Below, piece by piece: positions 1,398 to 44,318 of a stretch of 64,000 bases of DNA; positions within the stretch are counted from its first letter, which is position 1, and the number at the start of each line of letters is the position of its first letter. Position numbers and translations under genes: made by a program. Origin of the DNA: Basilea psittacipulmonis DSM 24701 (GTDB lineage Bacteria > Pseudomonadota > Gammaproteobacteria > Burkholderiales > Burkholderiaceae_B); the NCBI RefSeq assembly GCF_000743945.1, contig NZ_CP009238.1, positions 1,860,001 to 1,924,000 on the forward strand, given 5' to 3'. The notes under the pieces were generated by a model. It made no database searches, was not told where the DNA came from, and was given only the letters and a program-made list of their open reading frames with translations.

Positions 1398-1763
1398 TTA
1401 TTTCTTGAGTGAAGCAGCTGCACGGCGCGGTCCTTTACGTGTACGAGCGTTAGTGCGCGTACGTTGACCGCGGACGGGCAAACCACGTCTGTGGCGCATG
1501 CCACGATATGTACCTAAGTCGATCAAACGTTTAATCGATAATTGTACTTCGCGTCGCAAATCACCCTCTACTGTAAATTCGCCAACTTGTTCGCGAATTT
1601 TTTCAAGTTCTGAATCTGTTAAATCTTTAATTTTCTTGTCAAAAGGTACGCCAGCGACTGTGCAAATTTTGCGAGCGCGTGAACGACCAATTCCAAAAAT
1701 CGCTGTTAAACCGATTTCAGCGTGTTTTTGCGGCGGAATGTTAATGCCTGCGATACGGGCCAT
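1398..1763 (-). CDS. rpsM: 30S ribosomal protein S13
   Basis: S13 binds the head of the 30S subunit and contributes to bridges with the 50S subunit and to P-site tRNA contact. The 121-residue protein begins [10 protein letters not shown], has the helix-two-turn-helix core ([14 protein letters not shown]) and ends with the Lys/Arg-rich tail that reaches the P site ([14 protein letters not shown]). It opens the alpha operon section, 31 bp after the rpmJ stop. Confidence 0.98.
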
Positions 1764-1794
1764 GACTTTTCCTCGTTATTCAATCTCAGGGGAA

Positions 1795-1908
1795 TTAACC
1801 CTGACGTTGCTTATGTCTTGGATCTGTACAAATTACTCGTACAACTCCGTGACGTTTAATGATCTTGCAGTTACGGCAGATCTTTTTCACTGATGCCATT
1901 ACCTTCAT
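1795..1908 (-). CDS. rpmJ: 50S ribosomal protein L36
   Basis: L36 is the smallest 50S protein and stabilises 23S rRNA near the A-site finger. The 37-codon gene reads [14 protein letters not shown] and ends DPRHKQRQG. The zinc ligands CxxC, then C and H, are all present, so this is the zinc-dependent (C+) form. The start at 1906-1908 gives the [10 protein letters not shown]-terminus typical of betaproteobacteria; the inner ATG at 1897-1899 would give 34 residues. It lies between infA and rpsM. Confidence 0.95.
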
Positions 1909-36185: not shown

Positions 36186-36276
36186 CATCACTATTCATCC
36201 TTAGCTAGGATAGATTTAACTCATTCTCTTCATTGGAAAAGTGGTAAAATATAGGGTTTCTTTATATACTTTGCAT

Positions 36277-37206
36277 ATGAGCGAAAAGTATTCTCTAACG
36301 ACACCACCTAATATCGGCAATCTAGGCGATATTGATGCGTACATCACTGCGGTTAATGCCATTCCCATGCTTTCTCCTGAACGAGAGTATGAGTTAGCCA
36401 CCGCTTTGCATGATCATGAAGATTTAGATGCGGCACGACAACTGGTTTTGTCACATCTACGTCTAGTCGTGTCTATTTCTCGACAATACTTTGGTTATGG
36501 CTTACCTCAAGCCGATCTCATCCAAGAAGGAAATATCGGCCTGATGAAAGCCGTTAAACGATTTGATCCTAACCGTGGCGTACGTTTAGTATCGTTTGCC
36601 GTACATTGGATCAAAGCTGAAATTAATGAATACGTTGTGCGTAACTGGCGACTCATTAAAATCGCCACCACGAAAGCCCAAAGAAAATTATTTTTTAACT
36701 TACGCAGTATGCGTCCTGATACCTATCAGAGCCTCACTGACGAAAACATTCAAGAGATCGCCGACACGCTAAACGTGCGTCCCGAAGATGTTATTGAGAT
36801 GGAAAAACGTCTGAATAACAACGAGGTATCACTCGAAAGCCAAACGGATGACGATAGTACGGATAACTACGCACCTATCCATTATTTACCCGATGAGGAT
36901 GTCAGCGATCCCGTTGAAGCCATTGAACAGGAACATCGTCACGATCTCCAAACCAACGGGCTTCAATATGCATTAAATCAACTTGACGAACGGTCTCGCG
37001 ATATTGTTTCTTCTCGATGGCTGTCCGCAGACGGTCAGGTACCGACCTTACATGATTTGGCCGCAAAATATCACGTATCCGCCGAACGCATTCGTCAGAT
37101 TGAATCCGCCGCTCTAAAGAAAATGCGCCAATTTCTCAGCACCTATGAGGAACAGCAATATCGCCCTAAATTATTAGGCTACCAACCCAGCGAAAAAGCA
37201 TCTTAA
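36277..37206 (+). CDS. rpoH: RNA polymerase sigma-32 (heat-shock) factor
   Basis: RpoH directs transcription of heat-shock genes. The 309-residue product has region 2 (LRLVVSISRQYFGYGLPQAD, LIQEGNIGLMKAVKRFDP), the RpoH-box-like sequence AQRKLFFNLRSM that distinguishes sigma-32 from other sigmas, and region 4 with an HTH ending SAERIRQIESAALKKMRQF. I use the ATG at 36277. A GTG at 36241 also opens the frame but overlaps a likely -10 (TAAAAT, 36245-36250). No clear ribosome binding site precedes the ATG, so the leader would be short and perhaps controlled by structure or temperature, as in E. coli rpoH. Confidence 0.95.
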   Translation: MSEKYSLTTPPNIGNLGDIDAYITAVNAIPMLSPEREYELATALHDHEDLDAARQLVLSHLRLVVSISRQYFGYGLPQADLIQEGNIGLMKAVKRFDPNRGVRLVSFAVHWIKAEINEYVVRNWRLIKIATTKAQRKLFFNLRSMRPDTYQSLTDENIQEIADTLNVRPEDVIEMEKRLNNNEVSLESQTDDDSTDNYAPIHYLPDEDVSDPVEAIEQEHRHDLQTNGLQYALNQLDERSRDIVSSRWLSADGQVPTLHDLAAKYHVSAERIRQIESAALKKMRQFLSTYEEQQYRPKLLGYQPSEKAS

Positions 37207-37208
37207 TC

Positions 37209-37886
37209 TTAATCTGAATGCGTGTTAACGCCGCGTCCCCTTTTTCTCGGACGCATTCTGCGACTAACTGTTGGTTCAATACGCAGCAAGAAATCAGCAT
37301 CACCCAACACCCATTGCCCCGTCAATGCTTCTCGCAACTGCTTAGACTGTTCAGGTGAAACCCCTTCTTTAAAATACGCATAATATTTTTGTTGTCGTTC
37401 AAAAGGCGTATTGCCAATCACCCAATAATCCGCGTGATGCACCAAACAATGATGCACATTAGATAGTCCTGTATGATGTCCTGCTGAAGACCATTTCCAG
37501 TATTCTGGCACCACATTACCTCCTTGCGAAGCCAAATACGACTCGATCCACAACATAGCAGGCAAGGCCCATTTCTTATCTTGAATCAAAGACGAACGAT
37601 AACGTCTTTTGAACACCTTTCCCTGCCTTAATTTTGACGATAAATGTCTGCCTAGCTGTTGTACCAGCTGTGCCATGCTATTAGCGTGTTTGGGCGTGGC
37701 CAGCAAATAAATCTCATGATTCAAAAACAACCACGAATGCAAATCCACTTCAAACTCTTTAACCGACTGAGACAAGACGGAATACATGAATTGGGCCAAC
37801 TGCTCATCTTCCAGCAAGGCAGGCACTAACTCCACCTGCACCAGCTGGACCACTCCCTCTGCATATAATCTAGGTAATCTAGCCAC
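37209..37886 (-). CDS. Transposase-derived protein (degenerate Y1/REP-associated family)
   Basis: The 225-residue product begins MARLPRLYAEGVVQLVQVEL, the start typical of REP-associated tyrosine (Y1) transposases (MARLPRxxxPGxxxHV). Farther on it has LNHEIYLLATP where active enzymes have NHVHLLLTP, WIESYLASQGGNVVPEYW where they have the YIELNPVRAG tyrosine motif, and KWSSAGHH for the WSS motif. The HUH histidines and the catalytic tyrosine appear replaced. The C-terminus is basic (RRMRPRKRGRG). It is intact and convergent with rpoH (2-bp gap), which suggests a domesticated DNA- or RNA-binding protein. Its function is unknown. Confidence 0.7.
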   Translation of the reverse strand: MARLPRLYAEGVVQLVQVELVPALLEDEQLAQFMYSVLSQSVKEFEVDLHSWLFLNHEIYLLATPKHANSMAQLVQQLGRHLSSKLRQGKVFKRRYRSSLIQDKKWALPAMLWIESYLASQGGNVVPEYWKWSSAGHHTGLSNVHHCLVHHADYWVIGNTPFERQQKYYAYFKEGVSPEQSKQLREALTGQWVLGDADFLLRIEPTVSRRMRPRKRGRGVNTHSD

Positions 37887-37914: not shown

Positions 37915-40431
37915 TTATTCAATTTCTTCGTGTTTCTTGTATTTTTCCCAAACTTGCAACGCATACAAACGTTCTTCTAACACCTCATCCACTTTTTCTT
38001 TAATCGTTGGATACTTTTTCATCAGCTGTCTTAACTCACGACGCGTCAATGTTAACAATCGTGTATAGCTAAGCGAACGCACATTCACATAGACATCTTG
38101 ACGACGTAATAAAATCATCTCGCCAAACATCTGCCCCGTCCCCAATTCTGCTTTTGTATCATCAGCCAAGGTCATCGAAACCGCACCTGATGCGATAAAA
38201 TAAAGCGATCCCATGTATTTTGAACGTGTAAAGATCATTTGGTTAGGCATGGCAAAAACAGGTTTGAGCATCTTTCTCACCTCTTTCATTCCCTGTTCAT
38301 CCAACCCCTCAAAGAAAGGCACATTCACCATCAATTCTTTCGTACTCAAAGAAACGTCTAATGGAGGAATATCAACCAAATCTTCCCATCTTTTGTCCGC
38401 GTCCGAAATCAGTTCCGTATAAATTTCTGGTGTCACAATCGATTGATCCACCATCTCTTTATAACTTTGTTTTTCCATCGAACGTGCCACACGACCTAGA
38501 AAATGCACACGCATATTTCTCACATATTCTGGATAAGTCAGTTCCAATGCCATCACAGCATCATCAACCGCTTGAAGTCTAGCTTGTTGAATGCGACTGA
38601 CGGCCATTGCAATTTCTTCACCTAACAATACTTTAAGATCTTTTTCGCAGTATTGGATTAACGCCATGATCACACCGTGTTTGCCCAACAACCGCACCAA
38701 TCTCAAGGCCAAAATCAACGATAAAAAATACTTAATTCTAAAGTGCGTTTGCAACCACCATGCCACACGATAAGCAAAGGTATATCGCAAATCATTTCTT
38801 AACGCTTTAACATAGCCTCGACGACCGCCAGAGACGATGGCATCAGATAGACGTTCAGCATCATTGACAAGTATTTGAGCCACTTTTGGCTGAATCACTT
38901 GTCCGCTAAACATCTCCATAAAGTGATTCTCTTCACGTTTGGACAAAATACCCAAACCAATCGCGATCTGGTCTTCTTTGTCCAATGATGAAAAGTCCGT
39001 TTGTTCCCGCATTTTCTGGATACTATCTTTAAATTTTTGTGCGACCACTGCTTGTGTTTGGTCGTCCAATTCCAGCGTTTTGGCAATCTCTTTTGTTCTT
39101 GAACCACTATCATCCAAAGCAACGATCAAAGCTTGATCGCGTAACTGCACCTCCAACGGGCTAAGCTCACTTAATCTAAAATATTTAATCAAAGGACGCA
39201 AGGTCAAGCCATTAATAAATAACGTTGACAAGACAAACAAGGTCGTCGCACCTGTTAGAAAATGCTTCACTTCTGAGGGGATGCCAAAATGTTCTGTAAC
39301 CGACAAGGCCAAAGCAAGGGATAAAGCCCCTCTCAGACCACCCCACGAGATCACGGTTTTATAAGTAGATGAGATTTTATTAGCCAACCCTAATTTGTGC
39401 ATCAAAGGTAACACGCCAAAAACGGTAATGGCACGTGCCAACATCACCGCAATATACAAAATAATGGTGTAGCCCACATCCGCCCACGTCATGCCTAGCA
39501 CTAATTGGGGAATCATCATAGCGGCCAATAAGAAAATAAATGAGTTGGCAAAAAAGCCGTATTGCCCCCATGTCTCTTTGAGCTGATTATAGGTTTGTGG
39601 ACTAATGCTTGTACGCCCCTGGTTACCGACCACTAACCCACACAATACCGTAGCGACTACGCCTGATACACCAAAATAATCTTCCCCCACAATATACGTC
39701 ACATAAGCCGCACATAAGGTTAAGGTAATTTCTGCAGCAGGAAACCCTCGAATTACTTTAAACGCCCAGCAAGTCGCTAAGCCCATCACACTGCCGAATA
39801 ACGCTCCCATCAAGAAGCTATACAAGAAATGTTTGGAGATAGAGAATAAACTTAAATGATCCACCCCCATCCCCAAGGTGGCAATCAACACGGAGAACAT
39901 CGCTAAGGCGGCCGCGTCATTTAACAAAGACTCCCCCTCTAACAAGGTAATCAGCCGTCTAGGAGCCCCGACTTCTTTAAAAATACCCAGTACCGCAACA
40001 GGGTCGGTCGTTGCCACGATTGAGCCTAATAGTAAACAAACGATAAGACCATAAGTAGAGAATAACGATAAAATCGCCCCTACAAACGCTGTCGTGAGAA
40101 AGACTGCCAAAATCGCCATAACCATAATGGGGCCAAAGTCATTCATCACTTTGCGCAAATTCATCGCCATACTACTTTCAAACAGTAAAATAGGCAGAAA
40201 AACGGTCAGCAACATTTCTGATGAAATATGCATCGTATATAAGGCTGATAGAATTTCACCAACCACCGGCACATGATTAAACCAGCCACTACGAGCCACT
40301 AAGCCAATCAGGCACCCTACCGAAGACAATACCACGGTATAAGGCAATCTCAGTTTTCCAGACAAAGAAGGAATAAAACACGCTAGCGCTAATACCAGTG
40401 CAAACGCAAAAAACAAAAGAGAAGTATCCAT
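37915..40431 (-). CDS. Na+/H+ antiporter (CPA1/NhaP type) with C-terminal cyclic-nucleotide-binding fold
   Basis: This inner-membrane antiporter probably exchanges Na+ or K+ for protons. Residues 1 to about 415 are the exchanger domain with some twelve membrane segments, including the ion-site motif GESLLNDAAALAMF (about 165-178) and SWGGLRGALSLALAL. A helical region follows, and residues about 690-815 resemble a cNMP-binding domain (VPFFEGL, then GQMFGEMILLRRQD). The phosphate-binding cassette lacks the usual Arg-Thr-Ala pattern (it reads DVYVNVRS), so nucleotide binding is doubtful. The 838-residue layout is like plant SOS1-type exchangers. It appears to be monocistronic. Confidence 0.88.
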   Translation of the reverse strand: MDTSLLFFAFALVLALACFIPSLSGKLRLPYTVVLSSVGCLIGLVARSGWFNHVPVVGEILSALYTMHISSEMLLTVFLPILLFESSMAMNLRKVMNDFGPIMVMAILAVFLTTAFVGAILSLFSTYGLIVCLLLGSIVATTDPVAVLGIFKEVGAPRRLITLLEGESLLNDAAALAMFSVLIATLGMGVDHLSLFSISKHFLYSFLMGALFGSVMGLATCWAFKVIRGFPAAEITLTLCAAYVTYIVGEDYFGVSGVVATVLCGLVVGNQGRTSISPQTYNQLKETWGQYGFFANSFIFLLAAMMIPQLVLGMTWADVGYTIILYIAVMLARAITVFGVLPLMHKLGLANKISSTYKTVISWGGLRGALSLALALSVTEHFGIPSEVKHFLTGATTLFVLSTLFINGLTLRPLIKYFRLSELSPLEVQLRDQALIVALDDSGSRTKEIAKTLELDDQTQAVVAQKFKDSIQKMREQTDFSSLDKEDQIAIGLGILSKREENHFMEMFSGQVIQPKVAQILVNDAERLSDAIVSGGRRGYVKALRNDLRYTFAYRVAWWLQTHFRIKYFLSLILALRLVRLLGKHGVIMALIQYCEKDLKVLLGEEIAMAVSRIQQARLQAVDDAVMALELTYPEYVRNMRVHFLGRVARSMEKQSYKEMVDQSIVTPEIYTELISDADKRWEDLVDIPPLDVSLSTKELMVNVPFFEGLDEQGMKEVRKMLKPVFAMPNQMIFTRSKYMGSLYFIASGAVSMTLADDTKAELGTGQMFGEMILLRRQDVYVNVRSLSYTRLLTLTRRELRQLMKKYPTIKEKVDEVLEERLYALQVWEKYKKHEEIE

Positions 40432-43973: not shown

Positions 43974-44047
43974 AAAAAAAAGCACCATGAATGTTCATGG
44001 TGCCAAAAAATCCGTTTCTTTATTAGGGGAGGGAAAAGAGAGAAACC
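43974..44047 (-). ncRNA. Candidate small RNA with a C/U-rich loop
   Basis: On the minus strand an extended -10 promoter (44055-44063) is followed by about 74 nt with no ORF, then an intrinsic terminator. The RNA would start near G44047 with GGTTTC, carry a loop containing TCTCTTTTCCCTCCCCTAAT, and close with GAAAC. A U-stretch follows, then the perfect stem GCACCATGAA (44003-43994) / TTCATGGTGC (43991-43982) and eight U. The CCCUCCCC sequence can pair with ribosome binding sites, as in known anti-Shine-Dalgarno sRNAs with C-rich loops. No upstream gene on this strand needs the terminator. Confidence 0.65.
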
Positions 44048-44054
44048 AAAACGG

Positions 44055-44063
44055 ATTATACCA
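44055..44063 (-). promoter_or_regulatory. Extended -10 promoter of the candidate sRNA
   Basis: The minus strand reads TGG-TATAAT, a perfect extended -10 element, with transcription expected to start about 7-8 nt downstream at 44047-44048. No convincing -35 is present, as is normal for extended -10 promoters. Confidence 0.65.
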
Positions 44064-44318
44064 AGTCTTACATTGCATTCTTACTTGATACACTTACTAA
44101 GTCTCCTATTTTTGAATAAAGTTTCATCAAAAGCCCATAAAAATTGTAACAAATTGTAAACCTCCGTCGTTTACATTGCGTTTGCACACTTTTGCAACCC
44201 TCTTTTCAACCGCCATTACCTTGATTTTAAAAATATTTATAAATGCACTGCAAACACAACGCTGATGGAACTTCTAGTGCTAAAATACAAACTTAACCTT
44301 TATAGCAGGGGGCAGTAT

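What the first reader, a model, noticed from the sequence alone, without database searches (positions are those of the whole stretch)
43974..44063. Candidate sRNA with extended -10 promoter, C/U-rich loop and strong terminator
A perfect TGn-TATAAT on the minus strand is followed within 80 nt by an intrinsic terminator with eight U, and no minus-strand gene lies upstream that could need that terminator. Between them is a stem GUUUC/GAAAC whose loop holds CUCUCUUUUCCCUCCCC, able to pair with ribosome binding sites. C-rich-loop sRNAs of this layout are known in alpha- and betaproteobacteria (for example the cuckoo/CcsR type); this one has no obvious relation by sequence.
Basis: partly seen in the sequence, partly recalled or inferred. 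Interest (0 to 1): 0.75.

Follow-up and report, generated by a model that had tools for sequence, protein, structure and literature searches.

The report
Family-wide small RNA, mis-placed promoter
The short stretch encodes a real regulatory RNA of about 119 bases found across the bacterial family Alcaligenaceae, apparently the same RNA as one already seen in the whooping-cough bacterium, and conserved DNA in front of it suggests that cell-envelope stress switches it on.

Summary
The sRNA is real, but its promoter and 5' end were misread. A covariance model finds it, usually once, in 177 of 268 genomes of the family (35 of 43 genera). The C/U-loop stem and the terminator show compensatory changes at all 16 modelled pairs. 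In 42 of 45 relative loci it lies 113-358 nt downstream of rpoH on the same strand; in the window the block is inverted relative to rpoH (36241-37206). Location, length and C/U seed match Bordetella pertussis CT_521, an Hfq-dependent hub sRNA (PMC12235514), so the kind is known. Exact TATAAT occurs in the window only (1 of 46) and forms the 3' arm of a conserved 5' hairpin. The conserved promoter is GGAACTT/GAAACTT-N15-GACTAA, sigma-E type, about 40 nt further upstream (window 12 of 13 positions). Similar sites precede rpoH in most relatives scanned. The RNA is therefore about 119 nt (44092-43974). Best reading: an envelope-stress sRNA whose C/U loop masks Shine-Dalgarno sequences. No target was identified here. 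How CT_521 is controlled was left open in print, so the sigma-E promoter is the new, testable point.

The parts
44145..44159 (-). Two TTACA boxes 10 bp apart (44159-44155, 44149-44145), upstream of the promoter; possible binding site of an OmpR-type response regulator
   Evidence: TACA in the 45 nt upstream of -35 in 36 of 43 loci (3 of 46 dropped), shuffled mean 8.6, max 19; two copies 10 bp apart in 7 of 43, the window among them. Assignment to OmpR type is recalled, not tested
44119..44125 (-). -35 element GAAACTT of a sigma-E-type promoter
   Evidence: Aligned with GGAACTT/GGAAACTT of relatives; motif with -10 scores 12 of 13; GAAACTTN{14,16}GACTWA occurs once in the genome, here
44098..44103 (-). 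-10 element GACTTA (relatives GACTAA/GCCTAA), spacer 15
43974..44092 (-). sRNA, about 119 nt; start near 44092 inferred from the promoter
   Evidence: Three-hairpin fold, -31.5 kcal/mol, z -3.43; covariance model hit 43974-44056
44057..44092 (-). 5' hairpin, UGUAUCAAGU (44092-44083) with ACUUGGUAUA (44066-44057)
   Evidence: In 42 leaders own arms pair better than arms of other genera: mean -10.5 vs -6.0, 0 of 10000 permutations; window -10.1 vs cross median -3.7
44055..44060 (-).
   Evidence: Exact TATAAT in the window only, 1 of 46; fold
44010..44056 (-). Seed hairpin: 9-bp stem 44056-44048/44018-44010 around a 29-nt loop
   Evidence: All 9 pairs show changes on both sides; 98.8% of cells paired
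44026..44045 (-). C/U-rich seed UUUCUCUCUUUUCCCUCCCC, unpaired in the fold
   Evidence: Typical in relatives: CUUCUCCUC, 1-3 nt, UCCCCUCCC, with variants; fold
43974..44004 (-). Intrinsic terminator, 10-bp hairpin and U8
   Evidence: 7 of 7 modelled pairs show changes on both sides
36241..37206 (+). rpoH, upstream neighbour of the sRNA in relatives; here about 7 kb away, opposite strand
   Evidence: TIGR02392 hit over cut-off at 36328-37140; ORF
37915..40431 (-). Na+/H+ antiporter, downstream same-strand neighbour of the sRNA in relatives and here
   Evidence: Pfam; downstream on the sRNA strand in 24 of 24 loci where found, 45 loci examined

Best explanation
It is the gene of a trans-acting, Hfq-type small RNA of about 119 nt, orthologous to CT_521 of Bordetella pertussis. 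RNA polymerase with the envelope-stress sigma factor RpoE starts near 44092 from GAAACTT-N15-GACTTA. The RNA folds into a 5' hairpin, a hairpin that displays a C/U-rich loop, and a terminator with a U tail for Hfq. The loop pairs with G/A-rich Shine-Dalgarno regions of several mRNAs and blocks ribosomes. Shown here: the conserved gene, the covarying structure, the conserved promoter motif, an hfq gene and an RpoE-type sigma gene in the genome. Inferred: sigma-E use, the start site, Hfq binding, and the targets.
For: Hits in 177 of 268 family genomes, 35 of 43 genera, among them 4 of 4 genomes whose names are known. Covariation: 98.2% of cells paired, all 16 pairs changed on both sides, score 0.512 vs 0.210 shuffled and at most 0.155 slid. 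rpoH 113-358 nt upstream on the same strand in 42 of 45 relative loci. Promoter motif score >=10 of 13 in 40 of 46 (39 of them with spacer 15); window 12; shuffles >=12: 1 of 920, >=10: 76 of 920; once in the genome. Upstream of rpoH in relatives, GGAACTT-N15-GTCNAA-type sites score >=11 of 13 in 34 of 46 regions scanned (one an artefact) vs 20 of 920 shuffles, and B. bronchiseptica SigE transcribes rpoH (fam) in vitro (PMC3490749, passages). hfq present, over cut-off. One RpoE-type gene, TIGR02939 233.8 bits, just under its cut-off of 236.15. CT_521: about 120 nt, beside rpoH, Hfq-dependent, C/T-rich seed, Shine-Dalgarno-like target motif (PMC12235514, section 20).
Against: No transcript data for this organism. 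The window -10 departs from CTAA (CTTA). No site of >=11 in the stretch held around rpoE, and window rpoH scores only 8 of 13. No extended target: 5 non-self sites with <=3 mismatches to the 17-nt complement, none at a gene start, no excess over the reversed pattern (6 matches with self vs 6). 91 of 268 family genomes gave no hit. For one of 42 leaders (L064) the own arms pair worse than the cross median, and in 17 of 42 only do they beat 95% or more of the crosses. The only rseA deletion test in the passages read was for another sRNA, CT_532, with no effect.
Confidence: 0.75

Rival explanations
1. One reading: a 70-75 nt sRNA from the extended -10 TGG-TATAAT, made by the housekeeping sigma factor.
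For: The hexamer and TG are perfect, and an extended -10 needs little from a -35 (recalled). Six other loci reach 5 of 6 letters nearby.
Against: Exact TATAAT in 1 of 46 loci; it lies in the arm of a conserved hairpin; a start there removes the 5' arm of the covarying stem.
Confidence: 0.08
2. Same sRNA, but the conserved GAACTT-N15-CTAA promoter is used by another ECF sigma factor or, in this organism, has been taken over by the TATAAT, giving two transcripts or dual control.
For: The window -10 has drifted (CTTA) and a perfect TATAAT has appeared only here; window rpoH lacks the motif.
Against: GAAACTT with the right spacing and -10 is kept and unique in the genome; TIGR02939 matches only one gene in this genome.
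Confidence: 0.15
3. The RNA acts by titrating a protein or as an attenuator instead of base pairing with mRNAs.
For: No target found at gene starts in this genome.
Against: The unpaired C/U loop is among the best-conserved parts; CT_521 was caught with mRNA partners whose motif is Shine-Dalgarno-like (PMC12235514); no ORF of 60 aa or more lies on the same strand between the start and the terminator.
Confidence: 0.07

Closest known systems
CT_521 sRNA of Bordetella pertussis (PMC12235514; abstract, section 20 and passages read)
   Same: About 120 nt; gene next to rpoH; C/T-rich seed just upstream of the terminator; 3' region conserved in bordetellae and related bacteria; Shine-Dalgarno-like complement
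   Different: Window copy is separated from rpoH by a rearrangement and has a changed first seed block (UUUCUCUCU for CUUCUCCUC); Hfq dependence and targets untested here; sequence of CT_521 not seen
CT_433 / S17 and RF02278 toxic sRNAs (PMC11722255; abstract, sections 11-12 and passages read)
   Same: C/U-rich seed against ribosome binding sites, Hfq-dependent
   Different: Different gene and location; RF02278 did not match the window or five relatives; S17 uses a sigma-A promoter and is processed by RNase E to 67 nt
Sigma-E sRNAs MicA and RybB (PMC1804206, passages) and VrrA (PMC2628432, abstract start in a listing)
   Same: Promoter type, likely envelope-stress role
   Different: No sequence relation seen; the seed here is a C/U loop in the middle of the RNA; porin targets not shown
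Cuckoo/CcsR sRNAs of alphaproteobacteria (recalled)
   Same: C-rich loop RNAs
   Different: Analogy only; one copy in this genome; whether Rfam holds a cuckoo model was not checked
ncS54 RF02871 (Burkholderia)
   Same: Sub-threshold match, 29.7 bits vs cut-off 43, largely the terminator
   Different: Below cut-off and not listed for five relatives

Membership tests
CT_521-type sRNA (the family modelled here) | Seed hairpin plus terminator as in model R1 | tested here: met
   66 bits, E 9.8e-12, but the window was one of 16 training rows; relatives were first found independently by blastn and pattern
CT_521-type sRNA | Next to rpoH, same strand | tested here: not met
   In the window rpoH is about 7 kb away on the other strand; the antiporter is still downstream and NUDIX close by, so an inversion would explain it
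CT_521-type sRNA | Identity with the deposited CT_521 sequence | not testable with these tools
CT_521-type sRNA | Hfq-dependent, pairs with Shine-Dalgarno-like sites | tested here: inconclusive
   hfq gene present, U8 tail; target search gave no gene start
Sigma-E regulon sRNA | GGAACTT -35 with sigma-E -10 at fixed spacing | tested here: met
   12 of 13 in window; >=10 of 13 in 40 of 46 loci; resembles rpoH promoters of relatives
Sigma-E regulon sRNA | Expression depends on RpoE | not testable with these tools
   needs an experiment
RF02278 toxic sRNA / S17 | Covariance model match | tested here: not met
   no match up to E 10 (window stretch) or 5 (five relatives)
Cuckoo/CcsR | Several tandem copies with a CCUCCUCCC loop (recalled) | tested here: not met
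   one copy in the genome; the loop reads CCCUCCCC, not CCUCCUCCC

The most novel reading that the evidence does not exclude
Alcaligenaceae carry a family-wide, sigma-E-driven and perhaps OmpR-type-controlled sRNA, set beside the sigma-E-driven rpoH gene, whose anti-Shine-Dalgarno loop shuts down many mRNAs at once: an independent betaproteobacterial counterpart of MicA/RybB that joins envelope stress to heat-shock control, and the missing control of the Bordetella hub sRNA CT_521.
Probability: 0.5. Interest if true: 0.65.

Novelty: new member of a known kind. Interest (0 to 1): 0.5.

Why it matters
CT_521 is one of two hub sRNAs of B. [quoted passage not shown] A sigma-E-type promoter with the same 15-nt spacer in 39 of 46 loci, next to rpoH genes with a similar promoter in most relatives, makes that question directly testable. 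It would give Betaproteobacteria an envelope-stress sRNA unrelated to MicA and RybB. No Rfam family reached its cut-off here, so model R1 could seed one.

Tried and rejected
Rfam at gathering cut-off: only Alpha_RBS elsewhere. Relaxed Rfam: ncS54 sub-threshold in the window only; MicA 18.6 bits at E 1.2 is taken as chance. Blastn in plasmids and phages: matches only to glmU and rpoH parts or none, so the Bordetella genus could not be named. Literature searches for an rpoH-cpdA sRNA and for Achromobacter gave 0 papers and 1 review. A small protein is rejected: single-base indels in the loop between relatives (L004, L091) break any frame through it, and by eye no start codon is conserved. Extended complementary targets in the own genome: none at a gene start. 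A site of the same type near rpoE: none of >=11 in L026. L101 (28 bits, no rpoH) is probably chance; it was kept in the 46-row counts.

Caveats. Shuffles do not correct for descent; the slid controls and the cross-genus arm test do so only in part. Alignment A3 was fitted to the structure and leans towards it. Promoter controls are single-base shuffles. The motif was read from these sequences before it was scored, so measures consistency; searches are more independent. One search used 42 of 46 leaders (L073, L094, L095, L101 dropped); one search used 43 of 46 for the boxes (L073, L094, L095 dropped). In one search the letters ATCC were appended to each upstream stretch for the near-TATAAT scan. 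In one search the L086 and L066 rows are artefacts (rpoH truncated or mis-placed), one of them among the 34. Distances to rpoH run from the end of the tblastn match. The named genomes are, by contig positions, already among the 268, so they add names, not numbers.

Full report
Observation.

Conservation. blastn against 60 relatives hit one (G014, another genus, 79% over 47 nt, E 5e-4). A pattern for the stem and the CCUCCCC block hit 17 of 268 family genomes including the own one; the reversed-pattern control hit 1. A covariance model from 16 sequences (R1, 81 positions, 16 pairs) then found 177 of 268 family genomes at E <= 0.01, 35 of 43 genera, usually once (G080 and G205 have two matches). 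In a sample of 349 genomes of the order, 10 matched at E <= 0.001 and all 10 belong to the same family. Both searches used stricter filters that lose weak matches. Thirty genomes searched with laxer filters at E <= 0.1 gave 9 matches: the 8 that had matched before and 1 weak one (G248) among 22 that had not. So 21 of the 22 re-tested negatives, of 91 in all, stayed negative. Four genomes with known names have the RNA: Alcaligenaceae bacterium CAII-56 and CAII-52, Candidimonas sp. and Yanghanlia caeni (taxonomy of the last two genera). By contig positions they are members of the 268, so the family is Alcaligenaceae.

Structure. On 46 aligned matches, 98.2% of cells pair, all 16 pairs have changes on both sides, and the covariation score is 0.512 against 0.210 for shuffles and at most 0.155 for slid versions. 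CCGUUUC/GAAACGG in some genera is CCGCUUC/GAAGCGG in others. The loop is strongly conserved (typically CUUCUCCUC, 1-3 nt, UCCCCUCCC), with single-base indels that exclude a reading frame through it.

Promoter and 5' end. Upstream sequences share GGAACTT or GGAAACTT, 15 nt, then GACTAA or GCCTAA. The best site scores >= 10 of 13 in 40 of 46 loci, 39 of them with spacer 15; the window scores 12 (GAAACTT 44125-44119, GACTTA 44103-44098). Shuffled sequences reach 12 in 1 of 920 and >= 10 in 76 of 920. The pattern GAAACTTN{14,16}GACTWA occurs once in the 1.96-Mb genome, at this place. Exact TATAAT near the stem occurs in the window only; six other loci reach 5 of 6 letters. The leader between the promoter and the seed stem forms a second hairpin. 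In 42 leaders the two arms of one species pair better (mean -10.5 kcal/mol) than arms of different genera (-6.0), and 0 of 10000 permutations do as well. In 17 of 42 the own pair beats at least 95% of the crosses, the window among them (-10.1 against a median of -3.7); in one, L064, it is worse than the median. TATAAT is part of that hairpin's 3' arm. The RNA predicted from the sigma-E start is about 119 nt and folds into three hairpins, z -3.43; a relative from genus g15 gives 121 nt, z -4.57.

Why sigma-E. The -35 matches GGAACTT given for E. coli and Salmonella sigma-E promoters (PMC1804206 and PMC2893595, passages). B. bronchiseptica SigE drives the E. coli sigma-E promoter rpoHP3 and the Bordetella rpoH (fam) promoter in vitro (PMC3490749, passages). 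Upstream of rpoH in these relatives I find GGAACTT-N15-GTCNAA-type sites: 34 of 46 regions score >= 11 (one an artefact), against 20 of 920 shuffles. In most relatives the sRNA and rpoH thus carry similar promoters side by side. Against: the window's own rpoH region scores only 8, and no site of >= 11 lies in the L026 stretch around rpoE. The genome holds one gene matching TIGR02939 (RpoE) at 233.8 bits, just under the cut-off of 236.15, with neighbours that I take for rseA and rseB from position and recall, and hfq over its cut-off.

Upstream boxes. TACA occurs in the 45 nt before the -35 in 36 of 43 loci (shuffled mean 8.6, maximum 19). Two copies 10 bp apart occur in 7 of 43, the window among them with TTACA-N5-TTACA. 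A tandem 10-bp repeat there would suit an OmpR-type response regulator; that is recalled knowledge and untested.

Gene order. In 42 of 45 relative loci rpoH ends 113-358 nt upstream on the same strand; exceptions are L075 (1456 nt), L066 (other strand) and L101 (no rpoH). The Na+/H+ antiporter is downstream on the same strand in all 24 loci where it was found. In the window rpoH (+, 36241-37206), antiporter (-), sRNA (-) and NUDIX (+) lie within 9 kb, which fits an inversion of the sRNA-antiporter block relative to rpoH (inference).

Known relative. Kumar et al. 2025 (PMC12235514; abstract, section 20 and passages read) describe CT_521 of B. [quoted passage not shown] It had 22 RIL-seq partners and a Shine-Dalgarno-like target motif. 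[quoted passage not shown] In the passages read, the rseA mutant was tested only with CT_532. I could not see the CT_521 sequence or name the g15 genomes, so identity is a strong inference. The searches, several of them showing only the top of longer lists, listed no paper that I recognised, from titles and abstract starts, as tying this RNA to sigma-E.

Function. Most likely Shine-Dalgarno masking by the loop, as for CT_521. In this genome, 5 non-self sites match the 17-nt complement with up to 3 mismatches, none at a gene start; with the RNA gene itself that is 6 matches, and the reversed pattern also gives 6. Targets here are therefore unknown and probably short Shine-Dalgarno-like sites.

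Noticed in passing
window 44267-44295 (+): GGAACTTCTAGTGCTAAAATACAAACTTA just upstream of the NUDIX gene scores 11 of 13 for the same sigma-E-type motif (spacer 16); five sites of >=11 in 64 kb, the sRNA's included, so it may be chance.
   Followed up: partly
L094, L095 (genus g66): The sRNA appears to have a longer leader: by eye, a sigma-E-like site about 100 nt upstream of the seed stem, and a changed seed (UUUUCUCCUCCCUCCC and more C).
   Followed up: no
window 1731-1807 (-): Alpha operon ribosome binding site RF00140, 40.9 bits, just over its cut-off of 38.
   Followed up: no
G080:C25:203505 and 207239: Two copies of the sRNA 3.7 kb apart with equal scores in one genome; G205 also shows two matches, the other genomes listed with a match show one.
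   Followed up: no
window 37209-37886 (-): The ORF between rpoH and the antiporter resembles, by eye at its start, an ORF (319-1032, -) upstream of rpoH in L004; perhaps a transposase-like protein.
   Followed up: no
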